Shown here: positions 1 to 5,443 of the stretch, piece by piece
Numbering within the stretch: position 1 is the stretch's first letter
How the letters are laid out: every line of letters starts with the position of its first letter
Assembly: GCA_013288465.1 (NCBI GenBank)
Contig: JABDBT010000120.1
Location: 1 to 5,443, forward strand
DNA length: 5,443 nucleotides
Direction of reading: 5' to 3'
DNA from: Bacteroidota bacterium
GTDB lineage: Bacteria > Bacteroidota > Bacteroidia > Sphingobacteriales > Sphingobacteriaceae
Translations under genes and position numbers: made by a program
The notes under the pieces: model-generated
The model's database searches: none
What the model was told of the DNA's origin: nothing
The model's input: only the letters and a program-made list of their open reading frames with translations

Positions 1-1382
1 CTAATGACGGTATAAACGTGGTACGGTTTGCCAGCCCGACAGATAACCTGGACGATGGGCTGTTGGGCCAGGCCACTACTTTTTACTCGTCGAGAGATGG
101 TGTGCGGTGGGAAGCAGTTGATATTGATATTACGTTTGCGGCCACATCTGCCGTTAGCTGGAACTTTACCACCGGCGCGCCGGGGTCAGCACAATTTGAT
201 TTTGAAACGGCTGCCCTGCATGAGTTGGGCCATGCACAGATGCTGGGGCATGTGAATGACGCTACCGATGTAATGTATGCAAACATTGGCACAGGCACTG
301 CCATAAGGAGCTTAAGCGCCAATGATATTACCGCAGGGAATTATACGATGCAGCTTAGCACGCCCAGCGCAAGTACTTATGTATTTGCCCCTATGACCCC
401 ATCAACAGCCGGGGGCTGCGCTTTGCCGGTAATAACCTCGTTTACGCCAACGGCAGGCAACACCGGCACAACCGTTACCATAACCGGTAACAACTTAACC
501 GACGCGCTGGCTGTTAGCTTTGGTAATACGGCCGCTACATCATTTACAGCAACATCAGCTGCCAATATCAATGCCATTGTTGGTACAGGCACTACAGGCA
601 TTGTATCTGTTACCACACCGGCGGGAATAGCTACGCTGGCAGGATTTAATTATGTATATAGCTTGCCGCCCAACAATTTTCAATTAACTATTACCGGGGC
701 CACCTGTAAGGGCAGCACCAATGGGTCGGTTACTATTACGGCGGCGCAGCCTTTAGCTTATACCGCTACCATTACCGGCAATGGAGTAAATACGCCCTAT
801 GCTTTTAATGATACGCAAACCATTAATAACCTGACAGCGGGTACGTACTCGGTATGTATTACCGTGGCAGGGCAGGCGGGTTATTCGCAATGCTTTACAG
901 CTGTGATCACCGAACCTAAAGACCTAACGCTTTATTCCACTGTTAACATTGGTACGTTTAGCAGTTTGAGCCTGGCCCTAACCGGTGGCGCGCAATATAA
1001 CATACAGCTAAACGGCGTTACTTATACCACTACAGCAAGCACTATTACCCTGCCGCTGAAGGATGGCGTTAATAACCTGGTAGTCACCACCGATAAACCC
1101 TGCCAGGGCACGGTGCTAAAAACTATTAATTTATCGGGCAATTTAGTGCCTTATCCCGATCCGTTTACCGGCACTTTAAACCTTAACCTGGGCATAGCTA
1201 ATGTGGGCAATATAGCGGTTGAGATACATAGCGTTAATGATGGCAAGTTGGTTTTTAGTCAAAAATACACTAACCAGTCGGGCGTGTTACAGCTTGACCT
1301 GAGCGGGCTGGGCAGCGGCATTTACGCGCTGAAACTTACTACGGATAATGTTGAAAAACTATTTAAAATACTGAAGAAATGA
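1..1382 (+). CDS. Secreted metzincin-type zinc metalloprotease with TIG domain and type IX sorting domain (5' partial)
   Basis: The reading frame is open to the left edge (first full codon at 3), so the N terminus and signal peptide lie outside; 459 residues are visible. Counting from the GTG at 18 as residue 1, residues 68-78 are HELGHAQMLGH, the HExxHxxxxxH zinc site of metzincins (H68, H72, H78 as ligands, E69 as general base). VMYAN at 85-89 supplies a plausible Met-turn (M86). Aspartate-rich sequence before it suits a matrixin-like catalytic domain. Residues about 137-213 (PVITSFTPTAGNTGTTVTITG...) form a TIG/IPT immunoglobulin-like domain. Residues about 223-300 resemble SprB-like adhesin repeats (CKGSTNGSVTI, NLTAGTYSVCITV). 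Residues about 378-454 (YPDPFTGTLNLNL... to a basic KLFKILKK end) match the type A C-terminal signal of the type IX secretion system. Inference: an exported, probably surface-attached or released protease; substrate unknown. The Gly usual at the eighth site position is Met here. The stop overlaps the next start. Confidence 0.88.
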   Translation, partial: NDGINVVRFASPTDNLDDGLLGQATTFYSSRDGVRWEAVDIDITFAATSAVSWNFTTGAPGSAQFDFETAALHELGHAQMLGHVNDATDVMYANIGTGTAIRSLSANDITAGNYTMQLSTPSASTYVFAPMTPSTAGGCALPVITSFTPTAGNTGTTVTITGNNLTDALAVSFGNTAATSFTATSAANINAIVGTGTTGIVSVTTPAGIATLAGFNYVYSLPPNNFQLTITGATCKGSTNGSVTITAAQPLAYTATITGNGVNTPYAFNDTQTINNLTAGTYSVCITVAGQAGYSQCFTAVITEPKDLTLYSTVNIGTFSSLSLALTGGAQYNIQLNGVTYTTTASTITLPLKDGVNNLVVTTDKPCQGTVLKTINLSGNLVPYPDPFTGTLNLNLGIANVGNIAVEIHSVNDGKLVFSQKYTNQSGVLQLDLSGLGSGIYALKLTTDNVEKLFKILKK

Positions 1383-2074
1383 AAAGGATAATTGCAGGCA
1401 TATCAGTTATTTTAATGTTATGCGGATGCTCGGGAAAAAACAGTGTCCCGTCAGCTACCGCGCCCGCTGTAGCTATATTGACCGCCCCGGCGCTTAATGC
1501 GGTTTGTACTACCGGAACGGTACTATCTGCCACACAAAGCACAGTTACATTTACCTGGAACCCTGCTGTCAATGCCCAAACATACGACTTGTACCTTAAA
1601 AACCTGTTAACTGCGGTTACCACCACACAAAGCGATATCACCGGCACAACGGTTGCCATTACGTTGTTGCGGGGCACACCTTACTCATGGTATATTGTTT
1701 CAAAAACATCAAAGTCAACCACCACGGCGCAAAGCGCTACCTGGAAATTTTATAACGCAGGCATAGGTGTTGTAACCTACGCGCCTTTCCCGGCGGCTAT
1801 TGTTTCGCCAACCTTTGCCCAAAATGTTACGGCAACAGCAGGCACCATTAATCTGAGTTGGACAGGTAGTTCGGTCAACGCCGGGTCTATTGCCGGATAT
1901 GATATTTACCTAAGCACAAGCGCCACGCCGGCTTTATTGAAAAGCGGGGTTACCGATAGCTTTTTAAACGGCGTGGCCGTAACATCAGGCACTACCTATT
2001 ACTGGCGGGTGATAACCAAAGATGCTTCTGGCGATACTTCCGACTCAGGAGTGTACCAGTTTAAGGTGAATTAG
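1379..2074 (+). CDS. Small lipoprotein with two fibronectin type III-like domains
   Basis: The product has 231 residues. The N terminus MKRIIAGISVILMLCGC is a lipoprotein signal peptide: a basic start, a hydrophobic core and the lipobox LCGC with C17 as the probable lipidated residue. After a Ser/Thr/Ala-rich linker come two similar beta-rich units, about 31-126 and 136-231. Each has the fibronectin-III-like pattern of a Trp strand (VTFTWNPAVNAQTYDLYL; INLSWTGSSVNAG...YDIYL) and a late aromatic strand (TPYSWYIVSK; TTYYWRVITKD). There is no catalytic motif, so it is probably a binding or scaffold protein on the outer membrane or periplasmic face. Its ATG overlaps the TGA of the protease gene (ATGA), which suggests translational coupling and supports this start. 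It may help display or assemble the secreted protease, but that is inference from position only. The product name beyond the domain type is unknown. Confidence 0.85.
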   Translation: MKRIIAGISVILMLCGCSGKNSVPSATAPAVAILTAPALNAVCTTGTVLSATQSTVTFTWNPAVNAQTYDLYLKNLLTAVTTTQSDITGTTVAITLLRGTPYSWYIVSKTSKSTTTAQSATWKFYNAGIGVVTYAPFPAAIVSPTFAQNVTATAGTINLSWTGSSVNAGSIAGYDIYLSTSATPALLKSGVTDSFLNGVAVTSGTTYYWRVITKDASGDTSDSGVYQFKVN

Positions 2075-2103
2075 GGTGCATATCCCAATGTATTGTTGAC
2101 GAT

Positions 2104-2119
2104 CCCGATAGTTATCGGG
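2104..2119. repeat. Perfect 7-bp inverted repeat (CCCGATA / TATCGGG)
   Basis: CCCGATA (2104-2110) and TATCGGG (2113-2119) are exact reverse complements separated by GT, 30 bp after the lipoprotein stop. RNA from this would fold into a tight, GC-rich hairpin, but no T-tract follows, so it is a poor intrinsic terminator. From memory, CCCGATAG(C/T)TATCGGG-like palindromes are common between genes in Bacteroidetes, so this is probably one copy of a dispersed repeat. It might still act in 3'-end processing or transcript stability for the upstream pair. Confidence 0.7.
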
Positions 2120-2230: not shown

Positions 2231-2260
2231 TTTGATTATTAAAAACAAGTTATAAATTTG
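2231..2260 (+). promoter_or_regulatory. Bacteroidetes-type promoter of the ABC transporter operon
   Basis: TTTG at 2231-2234 and TATAAATTTG at 2251-2260, which contains the exact TAnnTTTG (-7) element at 2253-2260, are separated by 18 bp. This fits the known Bacteroidetes sigma-factor consensus. Transcription would begin at about 2265-2268, giving an mRNA leader of only about 20-25 nt before the ATG at 2289. The leader shows no Shine-Dalgarno sequence, as is common in this phylum. Confidence 0.75.
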
Positions 2261-2286
2261 TAGTGTACTATTTAACTAATACACTA
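2261..2286. promoter_or_regulatory. Probable GntR (YtrA-type) operator
   Basis: TAGTGTA (2261-2267) and TACACTA (2280-2286) are perfect inverted repeats around a 12-bp spacer. The symmetry runs through the spacer too: 11 of 13 base pairs across the 26 bp match. It begins at the base after the -7 element, covers the predicted transcription start and ends 2 bp before the ATG, so a bound protein would block initiation. The half-sites AGTGTA/TACACT are those I recall for B. subtilis YtrA, whose spacer is about 13 bp. The only regulator gene in the operon (3897-4271) is of that subfamily, so autoregulation is the natural inference. I saw no second copy in the window. Confidence 0.78.
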
Positions 2287-2288
2287 AT

Positions 2289-3113
2289 ATGATCGAAATA
2301 TCACATCTCACATTTGGTTATGGTAAAAACAAATTGTTCCATGATTTAAACCTGTCATTACAAGCCGGGCATATTTATGGGCTGCTGGGCAAAAATGGTT
2401 CTGGCAAGTCAACCCTGCTCAAAAACATAACGGGGCTGGTTTTTCCTTGGGAAGGCACTTGCCATGTAAACGGCTATACTGCTGCCAAACGGGTGCCCAC
2501 CTTTTTACAGGAATTATTTTTTGTACCTGAAGAAATATACCTGCCACCTGTTACCGCTAAACAATTTGCTGATAGTACGGCACACTTTTACCCCAACTTT
2601 GACAACCATCAGTATAACAATTTACTGGCCGAGTTTGATGTCCCTGCCGATAAGGTGCTGACCAAATTATCCTTTGGCCAGCAAAAAAAGGTAATGATCG
2701 CTTTTGGGTTATCAACCAATACGGCTTTGCTAGTAATGGACGAGCCTACCAACGGGCTTGATATCCCATCAAAAACCCAGTTCCGTAAGATCATTGCTTC
2801 CGCTTTGACCGAAACACGCTGTATAATTATCTCTACCCACCAGGTGCGCGACCTGGATAACCTTATAGATACTGTATTGATATTGCACGACCGGCAAATT
2901 GTAGTTGCCAAAAGCCTGGATGAAATTGCCGAAAAAGTACATTTCGGTATAACCGCCGGCACAGACTACCTGTATGCCGAAGAAAGCATTGGCGGCATTA
3001 ATGCCATAACCTTAAATACAAACGGTGGCTATAGTAAAGTTGATATGGAATTACTATTTAACGTTATAACCGGTAACAATAAAAACATAACTGAAATTTT
3101 AAACAGATCGTAA
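2289..3113 (+). CDS. ABC transporter ATP-binding protein
   Basis: This 274-residue cytoplasmic ATPase would power the membrane protein encoded next. Visible motifs in order: Walker A GKNGSGKS (34-41), a Q-loop region FFVPEE (77-82) with the Pro-Glu-Glu form seen in YtrB/EcsA-like and drug-efflux ATPases, the signature LSFGQQKK (127-134, Phe in place of the first Gly of LSGGQ), Walker B LLVMDEPTNGLD (147-158) with catalytic E152, and the H-loop STHQ (H184). The last 60 or so residues (about 215-274) are a variable C-terminal extension. All residues needed for ATP hydrolysis are present. It is the first gene of a tight operon: 2 bp to the permease, then a YtrA-like regulator. The start at 2289 is supported by the promoter and operator just upstream and by a typical N terminus (MIEISHLTFGYG). 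Substrate is unknown; export or envelope-stress/antibiotic response is inferred from the regulator type. Confidence 0.92.
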   Translation: MIEISHLTFGYGKNKLFHDLNLSLQAGHIYGLLGKNGSGKSTLLKNITGLVFPWEGTCHVNGYTAAKRVPTFLQELFFVPEEIYLPPVTAKQFADSTAHFYPNFDNHQYNNLLAEFDVPADKVLTKLSFGQQKKVMIAFGLSTNTALLVMDEPTNGLDIPSKTQFRKIIASALTETRCIIISTHQVRDLDNLIDTVLILHDRQIVVAKSLDEIAEKVHFGITAGTDYLYAEESIGGINAITLNTNGGYSKVDMELLFNVITGNNKNITEILNRS

Positions 3114-3115
3114 CC

Positions 3116-3892
3116 ATGAATAATGTATTTAATGTAAGAAGGTTTTCAATGCTATTTAAAAAACACAGCATTGAGCATGGCAACACCTATTTATTATCCA
3201 CCGCGGTACTAATTGGCTTATTATTTCTTTCGTTAGGTTTCTTTTCATATACCAGCAGGGGCCATTTGGATAGTAACGCGCAAACTTCAACCTTTATATT
3301 TTTTATGCTGATTGGCGGCAGCATATTTACCAGCTTAACTTTTTTGGATCTGGGTGATAAGAAAAAGTCTATCCCGTTTCTCACCTTACCTGCCTCACAT
3401 ACTGAAAAATACCTGGTAGCGTGGATATACTCATTCGTTATATTTCAATTGGTTTTTTTAGGCGCGTTTTATTTGGTCGCCAATGTCATCGTGGCTATTG
3501 GGGTAACGCCTGCAAATGACCGTGAGCGGGTAATCAATGTATTTGATCCCCAGCAAAAAACCGTAATGACTTTTACAATTTATGCGCTGTTCCATGGCCT
3601 TACCATTTGGGGTGCCATTTTCTTCGAAAAACTGCACTTTATCAAAACAAGCTTTGTTTTCTTTATTGGCCTGGCCATTATTTTATTGATCAATAGCCAG
3701 TTGTTAAATTTATTGATCGGCAAAGAAGCACAAGGGGTGCCTTTCCAGGGAATGGGTATCAATAACAACAATCATTTCTGGCAGATATCTCCCGATAAAG
3801 ACGTGACCTGGTATGGCTGGTATATTTTTAAAATTACAGTACTATTATTATGGACAAGTGCCTTTTTCAGGCTAAAAGAAAAAGAGGTATAA
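3116..3892 (+). CDS. ABC transporter permease, six predicted membrane helices
   Basis: The 258-residue product is strongly hydrophobic. Likely membrane segments lie at about 24-45, 58-76, 98-128 (long, perhaps kinked), 148-170, 176-200 and 232-252, with a basic N terminus (VRRFSMLFKKH) and a charged C-terminal tail (RLKEKEV). The cytoplasmic-looking loop DLGDKKKSIPFLTLPASHTEKYL (about 78-100) contains the LPAS..EK pattern that I recall from Bacteroidetes ABC-2-like permeases; it may form the coupling contact with the ATPase. A polar stretch at about 203-231 (GVPFQGMGINNNNHFWQISPDKD) would be extracytoplasmic. The gene begins 2 bp after the ATPase stop and ends 4 bp before the regulator, so the three are surely cotranscribed. 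The transporter would be a homodimer of this protein with two ATPases, or a heterodimer with a subunit encoded elsewhere. No substrate can be read from the sequence. Confidence 0.85.
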   Translation: MNNVFNVRRFSMLFKKHSIEHGNTYLLSTAVLIGLLFLSLGFFSYTSRGHLDSNAQTSTFIFFMLIGGSIFTSLTFLDLGDKKKSIPFLTLPASHTEKYLVAWIYSFVIFQLVFLGAFYLVANVIVAIGVTPANDRERVINVFDPQQKTVMTFTIYALFHGLTIWGAIFFEKLHFIKTSFVFFIGLAIILLINSQLLNLLIGKEAQGVPFQGMGINNNNHFWQISPDKDVTWYGWYIFKITVLLLWTSAFFRLKEKEV

Positions 3893-3896
3893 GATC

Positions 3897-4271
3897 ATGG
3901 ATTTTAAAGATAAAGAAGCCATATACCTGCAAATTGCAGCCTATGTGTGCGAACATATAACACTGGGCAAATGGCTGCCCGAAGAAAAGATACCATCTGT
4001 ACGTGAACTGGCGGTAACCTTACAGGTAAACCCAAATACCGTAATGCGTACTTATGAGTACCTGCAAAACCAGGATATCCTGTTTAATAAGCGCGGGTTG
4101 GGTATTTATGTAACAAGCCATGCTATTACCAAAATAAAAACTATCAGTAAGGAACGTTTTCTTCAACAGGAACTGCCTGGCTTTTTCAGGAGCCTTTACC
4201 TGCTGGATATAAGCCTTGACGAAGTGCAAAAACGTTATGAAACCTTTATAAAAGAAAACTATCAGCAATAA
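3897..4271 (+). CDS. GntR-family transcriptional regulator, YtrA subfamily
   Basis: The 124 residues are about half the length of typical GntR proteins and right for the YtrA subfamily, which has a winged helix and only a short two-helix tail. The DNA-binding domain covers about 8-75: AIYLQIAAYVCEHITLGKW, then the family motif LPEEKIPSVRELAVTLQVNPNTVMRTYEYL (27-56, helix-turn-helix, recognition helix about 45-56), then the wing KRGLGIYV (65-72). The tail (about 78-124) is helical and probably serves in dimerisation; no ligand pocket of the FadR or UTRA type is present. YtrA-type regulators usually repress neighbouring ABC transporter operons. Here the gene is third in the operon, and the promoter carries a matching inverted repeat at 2261-2286, which argues for autorepression. 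The start at 3897 lies 4 bp past the permease stop and gives the standard N terminus; AAAGAGG upstream (about 3880-3886) could help ribosome binding. The inducing signal is unknown. Confidence 0.92.
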   Translation: MDFKDKEAIYLQIAAYVCEHITLGKWLPEEKIPSVRELAVTLQVNPNTVMRTYEYLQNQDILFNKRGLGIYVTSHAITKIKTISKERFLQQELPGFFRSLYLLDISLDEVQKRYETFIKENYQQ

Positions 4272-4282
4272 ACCTATTTATC

Positions 4283-5047
4283 ATGAAAACAAGTAATAAA
4301 ATATTAGTAGTGGCAAGCCTGATCGTTATTGCCTATTTAACAGTATATGATCTGGGGCTACAAGCTGAATATAGAAAAGGCGATTATAAAAAACAGTTTT
4401 ATCATATGCAGCAGCTAAGCTTTGCCCATTTCAACGTCATTAAACACAATGCAGGGAACATAATTGGCCTGCAAATTGAGAAAGGGCCTTATGGTGTATG
4501 GGTTGATGATAACCTGAAAGATAAAGTAACCATAACCCAACATGATCAAATGCTTCAAATTGATTATACCGGTAAAGAAAATTATAACAATGGGTATAGC
4601 CCGGCAATTATTATCACCTGCCCTGGTGTGGCCGGTGTATTTACTAATGCTTTTATTAAACCCGGTGGCAACCCTGATAACCGGTATCTGCGTAAGAACG
4701 GAAACTCGATGATCATAGATTATTACCCTCATGGCATTACCACGGTTATGCGATTTGATCAGCCTGCAATGACTGTACAGGCAAATGAATTTACCGAAAT
4801 TCACCTAACCAAAAATACCCTTGATGTTTTAAACGCCAAAGTTGGCGACAGGCCAAACGGAAAGGCCGGTTTAACAATTGATGCGGATAATCAGCTAAAA
4901 TATGCCGATTTTGAGGTGCCGGGCAAAAGCACCCTAACTTTAGATAACCTGTTAATTGGTAAAGTAACCTACAAACTGGCCGACAGCGCCCAGGTAAACT
5001 TAACCGGTATGGCAGTGCATTTATTAGATCATCCGTCAACCCCATAA
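4283..5047 (+). CDS. Membrane-anchored exported protein of unknown function, last gene of the transporter operon
   Basis: I do not recognise this 254-residue protein with certainty. It starts with a short basic end and one hydrophobic segment (about 7-22, KILVVASLIVIAYLTVY) without a clear cleavage site or lipobox, so it is probably anchored in the inner membrane with the rest in the periplasm. The remainder looks all-beta: short alternating strands such as FNVIKHNAGNIIGLQIEKG (50-68), KVTITQHDQMLQIDYTG (81-97), AIIITCPGV (108-116) and repeated turns late in the chain (LTLDNLLIGKVTYKLADSAQVNLTG, 218-242). This resembles the right-handed beta-helix style of DUF2807-like proteins, but the match is only suggestive. 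There are no catalytic motifs and only one cysteine (C113). It begins 11 bp after the regulator and ends the operon, so it is under the same control and may sense, bind or deliver the transported substrate. That role is inference from position. Confidence 0.8.
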   Translation: MKTSNKILVVASLIVIAYLTVYDLGLQAEYRKGDYKKQFYHMQQLSFAHFNVIKHNAGNIIGLQIEKGPYGVWVDDNLKDKVTITQHDQMLQIDYTGKENYNNGYSPAIIITCPGVAGVFTNAFIKPGGNPDNRYLRKNGNSMIIDYYPHGITTVMRFDQPAMTVQANEFTEIHLTKNTLDVLNAKVGDRPNGKAGLTIDADNQLKYADFEVPGKSTLTLDNLLIGKVTYKLADSAQVNLTGMAVHLLDHPSTP

Positions 5048-5099: not shown

Positions 5100-5142
5100 C
5101 CTTCCTCTGTAACATAAGTAATTATCATTGCGTCAAATAAAT

Positions 5143-5166
5143 GCAATACATAGTACTATGCATTGC
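5143..5166. promoter_or_regulatory. 24-bp near-perfect palindrome, probable operator of the downstream outer-membrane gene
   Basis: The centre CATAGTACTATG (5149-5160) is a perfect 12-bp palindrome. The flanks GCAATA (5143-5148) and CATTGC (5161-5166) extend it to 24 bp with one mismatched pair (11 of 12 match). A further CATTGC lies at 5126-5131, 35 bp upstream of the same hexamer, so a second, partial site may be present. It sits 55 bp before the next start codon, away from any gene, as expected for a dimeric regulator's site. No regulator gene is adjacent in the window. I could not find a convincing TAnnTTTG promoter element between it and the start. Confidence 0.55.
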
Positions 5167-5221
5167 TTATGACTAAAAACAGCGTAAATGGAAAAGTATT
5201 TTCAATTTAAATAGCAACAAA

Positions 5222-5443
5222 ATGAAATCAAAAAAACTTATCATTTATTTACTATTCATTATAGCCGGATTGTTGCCATTAGCTATGCGGGCGCAGGACA
5301 AGCTTCAACTATCCGGCAAGGTTATTGATTCGGCTACACAAAAGCCGCTTGATTATATAACCGTCAACTTAAAAAACGATAAACAAACACCCGTTAAGGT
5401 ACAGGTGACGAAAAATAACGGGGCCTTTGTTTTTACCGGGCTT
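5222..5443 (+). CDS. N terminus of an outer-membrane protein with carboxypeptidase-regulatory-like domain (3' partial)
   Basis: The ATG at 5222 opens a frame that runs to the window edge (74 codons). The first 24 residues are a classical signal peptide: MKSKK, a hydrophobic core (LIIYLLFIIAGLLPLA) and AMRA before QDK, with cleavage likely after A24. From about residue 28, LQLSGKVIDSATQKPLDYITVNLKN...NNGAFVFTGL is the typical opening of a carboxypeptidase-regulatory-like (CarboxypepD_reg) beta domain. In Bacteroidetes this most often precedes a TonB-dependent receptor or a large outer-membrane beta-barrel protein. The plug and barrel would lie beyond the window, so the family is inferred. The start is chosen because it gives a complete signal peptide and the upstream region is AT-rich and non-coding. 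It is separated from the transporter operon by 174 bp with a possible terminator and a palindrome, so it is probably a separate transcription unit. Confidence 0.82.
   Translation, partial: MKSKKLIIYLLFIIAGLLPLAMRAQDKLQLSGKVIDSATQKPLDYITVNLKNDKQTPVKVQVTKNNGAFVFTGL

What the first reader, a model, noticed from the sequence alone, without database searches (positions are those of the whole stretch)
2231..2291. Promoter, YtrA-like operator and start codon packed into about 60 bp
The -7 element (2253-2260) is followed without a gap by a 26-bp inverted repeat with 11 of 13 pairs matching, which ends 2 bp before the ATG. Its half-sites AGTGTA/TACACT are the ones I recall for YtrA of B. subtilis, in a different phylum, and the operon encodes a YtrA-subfamily regulator. 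If both hold, operator and regulator have stayed paired across a very large distance, with a spacer one base shorter. The site covers the transcription start and nearly the whole leader, predicting tight autorepression.
Basis: partly seen in the sequence, partly recalled or inferred. Interest (0 to 1): 0.7.

Follow-up and report, generated by a model that had tools for sequence, protein, structure and literature searches.

The report
Conserved repressor site of transporter operon
Just downstream of the promoter of a small transporter operon in a Mucilaginibacter-like bacterium sits a 26-base mirror-image DNA site that is almost certainly where the operon's own GntR/YtrA-type regulator binds to switch the operon off, and nearly the same site is found in relatives across the phylum and even in some Firmicutes.

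Summary
79 of 80 orthologous loci carry the site upstream of the ATPase gene (the 80th contig is cut short). In a phylum draw, 28 of 28 genomes encoding the regulator have it (16 exact, 12 variant); 20 of 24 exact sites found blind in 395 genomes lie before such a regulator gene. The half-site equals the published B. subtilis YtrA one, and some Bacillota operons carry almost the same 26-mer (24, 22 and 20 of 26 identical; random maximum 17). The 12-bp spacer is not a phylum mark: Bacillota show 12 and 13. Conserved is the promoter-operator register; the 2-bp gap to the ATG is not (-1 to 29, median 11), and the inferred 24-nt leader is ordinary. In some lineages operator bases change with regulator residues (V27T with GTGCA, P38R with GTGTC), on few independent events and with one counterexample. 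Verdict: autoregulated YtrA-type operon, a well-supported new member of a known kind. Binding, repression, transcript start and signal are untested.

The parts
2231..2234 (+). -33 promoter element (TTTG), 18 nt before the -7 element
   Evidence: Sequence. In 94 of 109 distinct aligned loci a TTG lies in the 12-bp stretch at this distance from the operator; control stretches of equal width 12 and 19 of 109.
2253..2260 (+). -7 promoter element TAAATTTG (TAnnTTTG, Bacteroidota sigma-A type)
   Evidence: Sequence; TAnnTTT[AG] ends exactly at the operator in 64 of 109 distinct loci, TTT[AG] in 74 of 109. Consensus seen in passages of PMC7366714 and PMC9723704.
2265..2265 (+). inferred transcription start (+1)
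   Evidence: TAnnTTTG spans -12 to -5 in Flavobacterium psychrophilum (PMC9723704 passage), so G2260 = -5 and +1 = 2265; inferred, not mapped. Gives a 24-nt leader.
2261..2286 (.). operator: 26-bp inverted repeat TAGTGTACTATTTAACTAATACACTA, half-sites AGTGTA 2262-2267 and TACACT 2280-2285, GTG-N16-CAC; covers about -4 to +22
2289..3113 (+). ABC transporter ATP-binding protein, 274 aa, first gene of the operon
   Evidence: PF00005 E 2.7e-23; best NCBIfam model PmtA, 126.8 bits, below its cut-off of 350
3116..3892 (+). membrane permease partner, 258 aa, no Pfam match; hydrophobic stretches seen by eye only
   Evidence: No Pfam match; tblastn match in 80 of 80 genome loci
3897..4271 (+). YtrA-subfamily GntR regulator, 124 aa; recognition residues V35, R36, N45, P46, N47
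   Evidence: PF00392 E 2.1e-11; PDB 3ic7 E 5.9e-37 over residues 1-121; recognition residues
4283..5047 (+). fourth gene, 254 aa, unknown family, probably in the same operon
   Evidence: Starts 11 nt after the regulator's stop; tblastn match in 56 of 80 genome loci, directly downstream of the regulator in the 8 rows printed; no Pfam match above cut-off

Best explanation
2261-2286 is the operator of the 124-residue YtrA-subfamily regulator encoded as third gene of the operon (ATPase 2289-3113, permease 3116-3892, regulator 3897-4271, unknown fourth gene 4283-5047). A homodimer puts one winged helix on each GTGTA half-site; the GTG and CAC centres are 19 bp (about 65 A) apart. The site starts at the base after the -7 element and covers about -4 to +22, so the bound dimer should exclude RNA polymerase or block promoter opening. 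Because the regulator lies in the operon, this is negative autoregulation of what looks like a one-operon regulon, relieved by an unknown signal. Shown here: the site, its conservation, its register with the promoter, one site per genome in 12 relatives, cross-phylum identity. Inferred: binding, repression, +1 at 2265, relief.
For: 79 of 80 orthologous loci have the site upstream of the ATPase gene (seen, scored; L003 is cut short; the weakest is L031, whose right arm is degraded). Phylum draw: 28 of 296 genomes encode the regulator at E<=1e-25; all 28 have the site, 16 exactly and 12 as best match of a position matrix. Blind exact pattern: 24 sites in 23 of 395 genomes against 5 in 4 for the reversed pattern; 20 of 24 lie upstream of such a regulator gene (16 by the coordinates, at 1.6-2.4 kb; G312, G317, G359 and G383 with ATPase and regulator seen). 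One site per genome: 12 of 12 relatives have their own operator, and six extra one-mismatch sites equal six of the reversed control. Both arms carry the same change in 11 of 45 distinct loci that are not GTGTA/GTGTA (GTGCA 8, CTGTA 2, GTGTC 1). In 7 genomes with two or three such operons, regulators of different type have different operators. Regulators with T at position 27 have GTGCA in at least one arm in 10 of 10 distinct loci, others in 3 of 99. Recognition residues are the subfamily's commonest. B. subtilis YtrA binds AGTGTA-13bp-TACACT. Listeria 24/26, Paenibacillus 22/26, Lachnospira 20/26 identical 26-mers; maximum of 1734 random stretches 17/26.
Against: No binding or expression data exist for this protein. 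In 34 of the 45 variant loci the two arms differ (20 have CTGTA on the right only), so matched changes are the minority. The T27 association rests on about two origins in Bacteroidota, the paired test on the tree has no power, and Lachnospira eligens has T27 with GTGTA. Nonomuraea and Streptomyces regulators have Arg 28 and NPNT but no GTGTA site. L261, a Mucilaginibacter-type relative with V27 (group inferred), has the frame but GTGTA in neither arm. The matrix was trained on 55 sites of the first set, one of them an unrelated coding match in L065 that a filter slip left in; at least four of the 28 genomes (G001, G111, G092, G150) were already in that set. In 12 distant loci (L150-L161) no TTT[AG] abuts the site. 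The regulator is patchy: 28 of 296 genomes at that threshold. Several other non-Bacteroidota loci show no such site.
Confidence: 0.9

Rival explanations
1. The site acts mainly through the mRNA: the 24-nt leader, made mostly of operator sequence, tunes translation or forms a structure with the start codon.
For: The inferred leader is almost entirely operator.
Against: With +1 at 2265 the left half-site is split, so the RNA cannot form the whole palindrome. The distance to the ATG varies from -1 to 29 while the distance to the promoter is fixed in most loci. In the six Bacillota loci with the site it lies about 40-110 bp before the regulator gene.
Confidence: 0.04
2. The site belongs to another DNA-binding protein, and the GntR regulator acts elsewhere.
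For: No binding data; the sequence alone does not name the binder.
Against: Exact site and regulator co-occur: 16 of 28 regulator genomes against 2 of 268 others (Fisher p 4e-17; assumes that the 296 genomes are the first 296). Paralogous operons have regulator-specific sites, residue and base change together, and B. subtilis YtrA binds the same half-site.
Confidence: 0.03
3. The regulator is an activator or dual regulator that uses the site to recruit polymerase.
For: Some GntR proteins activate (recalled).
Against: The site lies at about -4 to +22, downstream of the -7 element, where bound proteins block initiation. PmtR and YtrASa, whose sites overlap the start, repress (passages), and YtrA of B. 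subtilis is a negative regulator (passage).
Confidence: 0.03

Closest known systems
YtrA / ytrGABCDEF operon of Bacillus subtilis
   Same: GntR regulator of the YtrA subfamily, ABC transporter operon, inverted repeat with half-sites AGTGTA/TACACT in front of its own operon, negative regulation (PMC8060467 passage)
   Different: Spacer 13 bp there, 12 here; two target operons there, one site per genome in the relatives searched here; regulator near the front of the operon there, third gene here; other promoter type
PmtR of Staphylococcus aureus (pmt operon)
   Same: YtrA-subfamily repressor of its own ABC exporter operon; footprint overlaps the transcription start (PMC5080381 passages); PmtA is the best NCBIfam model for the window ATPase
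   Different: ATPase and regulator score far below the PmtA/PmtR cut-offs (126.8 of 350; 42.3 of 200 bits); nothing suggests the same cargo
YtrASa of Sulfolobus acidocaldarius
   Same: YtrA-type autorepressor whose site covers the transcription start (PMC6746942 passages)
   Different: 14-bp core site there, 26 bp with 12-bp spacer here; archaeal promoter
YtrA-like regulator of Xanthomonas citri, site GGTG-N16-CACC
   Same: Same GTG-N16-CAC spacing as the window site (passage in PMC6746942)
   Different: Inner bases TA are not part of that motif; other phylum
PDB 3ic7 'Putative transcriptional regulator' (organism recalled as Bacteroides thetaiotaomicron)
   Same: Closest solved protein, E 5.9e-37, aligned over residues 1-121; relatives with the VNANT helix carry the same operator (L163 Phocaeicola, G242, G250)
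   Different: VNANT instead of VNPNT; its own operator and function were not looked up

Membership tests
GntR family, YtrA subfamily | N-terminal GntR winged-helix DNA-binding domain | tested here: met
   PF00392, residues 10-72, E 2.1e-11, 43.7 bits against cut-off 27
GntR family, YtrA subfamily | Short C-terminal domain of about 50 residues with two helices | tested here: inconclusive
GntR family, YtrA subfamily | Gene lies in an operon with ABC transporter genes | tested here: met
   ATPase PF00005; permease match in 80 of 80 loci
GntR family, YtrA subfamily | Long palindromic site with conserved GT/AC far from the centre, mostly a single site | tested here: met
   GTG-N16-CAC; one site per genome in 12 relatives; family description in PMC4494728 sections 5 and 12
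GntR family, YtrA subfamily | Subfamily-typical recognition residues (Val or Thr 27, Arg 28, Asn 37, Asn 39 in the numbering of PMC4494728) | tested here: met
   V35, R36, N45, N47 of the window protein; R36, N45, P46, N47 in 80 of 80 loci, V35 in 78 of 80. The mapping of the numbering onto this protein is mine, through the FadR column of Table 1
GntR family, YtrA subfamily | Regulator binds the site and represses the operon | not testable with these tools
   Needs gel shift, footprint and deletion
Ortholog of PmtR | Score above the curated NCBIfam cut-off | tested here: not met
   42.3 bits against 200
Bacteroidota sigma-A promoter | TAnnTTTG at -7 with TTTG near -33 | tested here: met
   2253-2260 and 2231-2234; register conserved in most loci; start not mapped

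The most novel reading that the evidence does not exclude
An ancient operator-repressor lock: a 26-bp operator kept nearly letter for letter (24/26) between Bacteroidota and Bacillota while the regulators diverged to 44% identity over the DNA-binding part, gene order changed between regulator-first and regulator-third, and the promoter type changed; and where the lock did change, a readable residue code did it (position 27 Val to Thr with GTGTA to GTGCA; position 38 Pro to Arg with GTGTA to GTGTC), which also keeps paralogous operons of one genome apart.
Probability: 0.3. Interest if true: 0.6.

Novelty: new member of a known kind. Interest (0 to 1): 0.42.

Why it matters
The comparative study of YtrA operators that I read in part lists no Bacteroidetes member among its YtrA regulators (PMC4494728, table in a passage), and none of the titles and abstracts listed by my searches is about one; I did not open the other listed papers, and subscription journals are mostly outside the library. 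The site gives an operator for this regulator group in Bacteroidota, a phylum with an unusual promoter type, and a natural set of paired regulator and operator variants with which the recognition code of the subfamily can be tested directly. If the inducing signal is found it also offers a compact repressible promoter for Bacteroidota genetics.

Tried and rejected
Whole genome of the window: none is held, so sites per genome were counted in 12 relatives instead. Spacer length as a phylum mark: rejected, Bacillota loci show 12 (L166, L168, L169, L178) and 13 (L170, L175). Packing against the ATG as a conserved feature: rejected. Extra operator sites elsewhere in genomes: not above the reversed-pattern control; four of 24 blind exact sites have no such operon beside them (G069, G281, G357; one of two in G265 by its place on another contig). 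A wider blind pattern that also takes GTGCA, GTGTC and GTGCC arms rang in 45 of 395 genomes, but its reversed control rang in many too; of the additional sites I looked at four (G230, G351, G260, G029) and found no ATPase-GntR operon beside them; the rest were not examined. More members of the P38R class: none besides G123 itself in the 30 loci read out of 52 matches. More T27 regulators in Sphingobacteriales: one (L230) among 30 loci read of 88 matching genomes; its operator has GTGCA on the left (L260), same clade as L031, not in the count. Independence of the T27 association: two starred independent pairs, no power. Three of 112 rows were repeats of others and were removed for the final counts; the Fisher value for T27 still held them. 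A GC-rich stretch at 2095-2190 was sought in four relatives without a match. The generic sigma-70 scan found nothing, as expected for this phylum. Loss of a row: L003 was dropped from operator counts because its contig ends before the site; L166-L170, L175, L178, L179 (not Bacteroidota) were left out of the 109.

Full report
What is there. The window holds an operon of ABC ATPase (2289-3113), membrane protein (3116-3892), GntR regulator (3897-4271) and a 254-residue protein of unknown family (4283-5047). Upstream of the ATPase gene lie TTTG (2231-2234), TAAATTTG (2253-2260) and the inverted repeat TAGTGTACTATTTAACTAATACACTA (2261-2286; 11 of 13 pairs), then two bases and the ATG at 2289. The finding is accurate in its coordinates. 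A palindrome of this strength arises in 9 of 2000 shuffles of the intergenic region, the motif itself in 0 of 2000. The nearest named relatives of the regulator are Mucilaginibacter (80-86% identity).

Conservation in orthologous operons. A scan of the genome collection with an alignment of 17 relatives returned the 80 best regulator loci, from Mucilaginibacter, Pedobacter, Hymenobacter, Pontibacter, Rufibacter, Dyadobacter, Larkinella, Chitinophaga and others (547 confirmed candidates, 80 kept). 79 of 80 have the site upstream of the ATPase gene (by eye, by matrix); the remaining contig (L003) ends too early. 54 of 80 match GTGTA-N12-TACAC exactly there; the rest are one or a few bases off, for example TAGTGTATTATTTAACTAATACAGTA in many Pedobacter, the weakest being L031 and L059. 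No locus needed another spacing. The permease is found in 80 of 80 and the fourth gene in 56 of 80 loci.

Conservation in a draw of the phylum. 28 of 296 genomes encode the regulator at E<=1e-25. 16 of these have the exact pattern GTGTANTAN6TANTACAC on the upstream side, 1.6-2.4 kb away; in the other 12 the best match of a position matrix in the fetched 4-5 kb is a site of the same spacing, in the eight printed about 1.6-1.8 kb before the regulator gene. Caveats: the matrix was trained on 55 sites of the first set, one of them an unrelated match inside L065 that a filter slip left in; and at least four of the 28 genomes (G001, G111, G092, G150) were already in the first set. The blind exact search gave 24 sites in 23 of 395 genomes, 5 sites in 4 genomes for the reversed pattern. 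20 of the 24 stand before such a regulator gene (16; G312, G317, G359 and G383 with ATPase and regulator seen); four do not.

One site per genome. In 12 genomes searched with one mismatch allowed, each has its own operator; six further sites are matched by six of the reversed control. This agrees with the description of YtrA regulons as mostly single operons with single sites (PMC4494728, section 12).

Promoter register and leader. Over 109 distinct loci (window included; three repeats removed), TAnnTTT[AG] ends exactly where the operator begins in 64 and TTT[AG] in 74; a TTG lies at the -33 distance in 94, against 12 and 19 in control stretches. In 14 Pedobacter-type loci TACTT or TACAT runs into the operator, so the register is kept within about 3 bp; several others (L215-L228) have a near miss such as TAATGTTG. 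By contrast the operator-to-ATG distance runs from -1 to 29, median 11 (111 rows, repeats not yet removed). In F. psychrophilum TAnnTTTG spans -12 to -5 (PMC9723704 passage), so +1 here should be 2265 and the leader 24 nt, equal to the median there (24) and next to the commonest B. thetaiotaomicron length (23, PMC7366714 passage). The site is thus anchored to the promoter, and the short leader is normal for the phylum. In 12 distant loci (L150-L161) no TTT[AG] abuts the site; in five (L154-L158) a TTTG lies some 12-13 bp before it. How promoter and operator overlap there I cannot tell.

Regulator and site belong together. The passage on B. subtilis YtrA gives AGTGTA-13bp-TACACT (PMC8060467). 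The window protein has Val, Arg, Asn and Asn at the positions that PMC4494728 links to specificity (27, 28, 37, 39; mapping mine), which that paper names as the commonest in the subfamily. Nine genomes of a Cytophagales-like draw had two or three such regulators (group inferred, one of them, G485, matches a Flammeovirga record in contig length); I fetched seven of the nine. There SVRQ/VNPNTVAR regulators have AGTGTAATAG... sites and STRE/VNPNTTIK regulators have AGTGCA...TGCACT sites. Over 109 distinct loci, T at position 27 goes with GTGCA in at least one arm in 10 of 10 (both arms in 8), other residues in 3 of 99; a separate Mucilaginibacter clade (L031, L059) is among the 10. One regulator with Arg at position 38 (VNRNT) has GTGTC in both arms (L145/L159). 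Against this: on the tree only two to three independent changes exist and the paired test has no power; Lachnospira eligens has T27 with GTGTA; of the 45 distinct loci that are not GTGTA/GTGTA, the arms differ in 34; L261 with V27 has GTGTA in neither arm.

Across phyla. From the plasmid collection (75 records hit, 60 listed, 22 fetched, of them 3 Bacteroidota and 19 other) 13 Bacillota loci were read. 6 of 13 carry a GTGTA-type site before the regulator: spacer 12 in L166, L168 (two sites), L169 and L178, spacer 13 in L170 and L175; these six all have Arg at 28 and NPNT, and the other 7 lack one or both. Outside Bacillota the rule fails: Nonomuraea and Streptomyces (L182, L183) have both residues and no GTGTA site. 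Identity of the best 26-mer to the window site is 24/26 (L178), 22/26 (L169), 20/26 (L166) and 17/26 (L168), against a maximum of 17 in 1734 random 200-bp stretches. The L178 regulator is 44% identical to the window's over residues 3-74. A gammaproteobacterial site (L167) has the same GTG-N16-CAC frame with other inner bases. The two alphaproteobacterial, two actinobacterial and the Deinococcus loci showed no GTGTA/TACAC pair. In the eight non-Bacteroidota loci annotated with the transporter the regulator is the first gene (L166, L168, L172-L175, L178, L183); in Bacteroidota it follows ATPase and permease. So the pairing is old or was exchanged early, and the 12-bp spacer is not a Bacteroidota invention.

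How it most likely works. A YtrA-type dimer binds the two half-sites, 19 bp between centres, about 65 A along B-DNA; PMC6746942 quotes 62 A between the recognition helices of the C. glutamicum protein (passage). Bound over about -4 to +22 it should block initiation, as reported for sites over the start in PmtR and YtrASa. As the regulator is encoded in the operon, the circuit is negative autoregulation. The signal and the transported substrate are unknown; in characterised relatives they concern cell-envelope stress or exported peptides, which is only a hint.

Verdict. The kind of system is known; what is new is its description in this phylum, its promoter-locked placement, and a set of paired variants that makes the recognition code testable. 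Papers: PMC4494728 sections 5 and 12 and passages; PMC6746942, PMC8060467, PMC5080381, PMC7366714 and PMC9723704 passages only; Salzberg 2011 and Rigali 2002 not read (known through those passages).

Noticed in passing
window 5142-5167: A second 26-mer with 11 of 13 palindromic pairs (TGCAATACATAGTACTATGCATTGCT) in the intergenic region before the carboxypeptidase-regulatory-like gene at 5222; unlike the operator in sequence.
   Followed up: no
window 2103-2118: CCCGATAGTTATCGGG hairpin just after the gene ending at 2074, perhaps its terminator, followed by a GC-rich stretch (about 2120-2165); 2095-2190 had no match in four relatives.
   Followed up: partly
window 4283-5047: Fourth gene of the operon: 254 aa, no Pfam family above cut-off, found in 56 of 80 orthologous loci.
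   Followed up: partly
window 3-2074: Upstream genes: a matrixin-like protease with TIG domain and Por secretion tail (3-1382) and a protein with weak Ig similarity (1379-2074).
   Followed up: no
L145/L159 (G123): Regulator with VNRNT in place of VNPNT and an operator changed in both arms to GTGTC; a natural specificity variant, only one found.
   Followed up: partly
L150-L161: Distant relatives whose operator is not abutted by a -7 element; five (L154-L158) have TTTG some 12-13 bp before the site, as if the operator lay between the promoter elements.
   Followed up: no
L172, L174, L177, L180: Another YtrA-like group (STTQ, STTE or STNE with NPAT or NPST) lacks the GTGTA site; three of the four (L172, L174, L177) have a TTAGTTAC...AAT-type element before the regulator.
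   Followed up: no
L259 (G725): Regulator with VNPLT in place of VNPNT in the recognition helix; its operator was not fetched.
   Followed up: no
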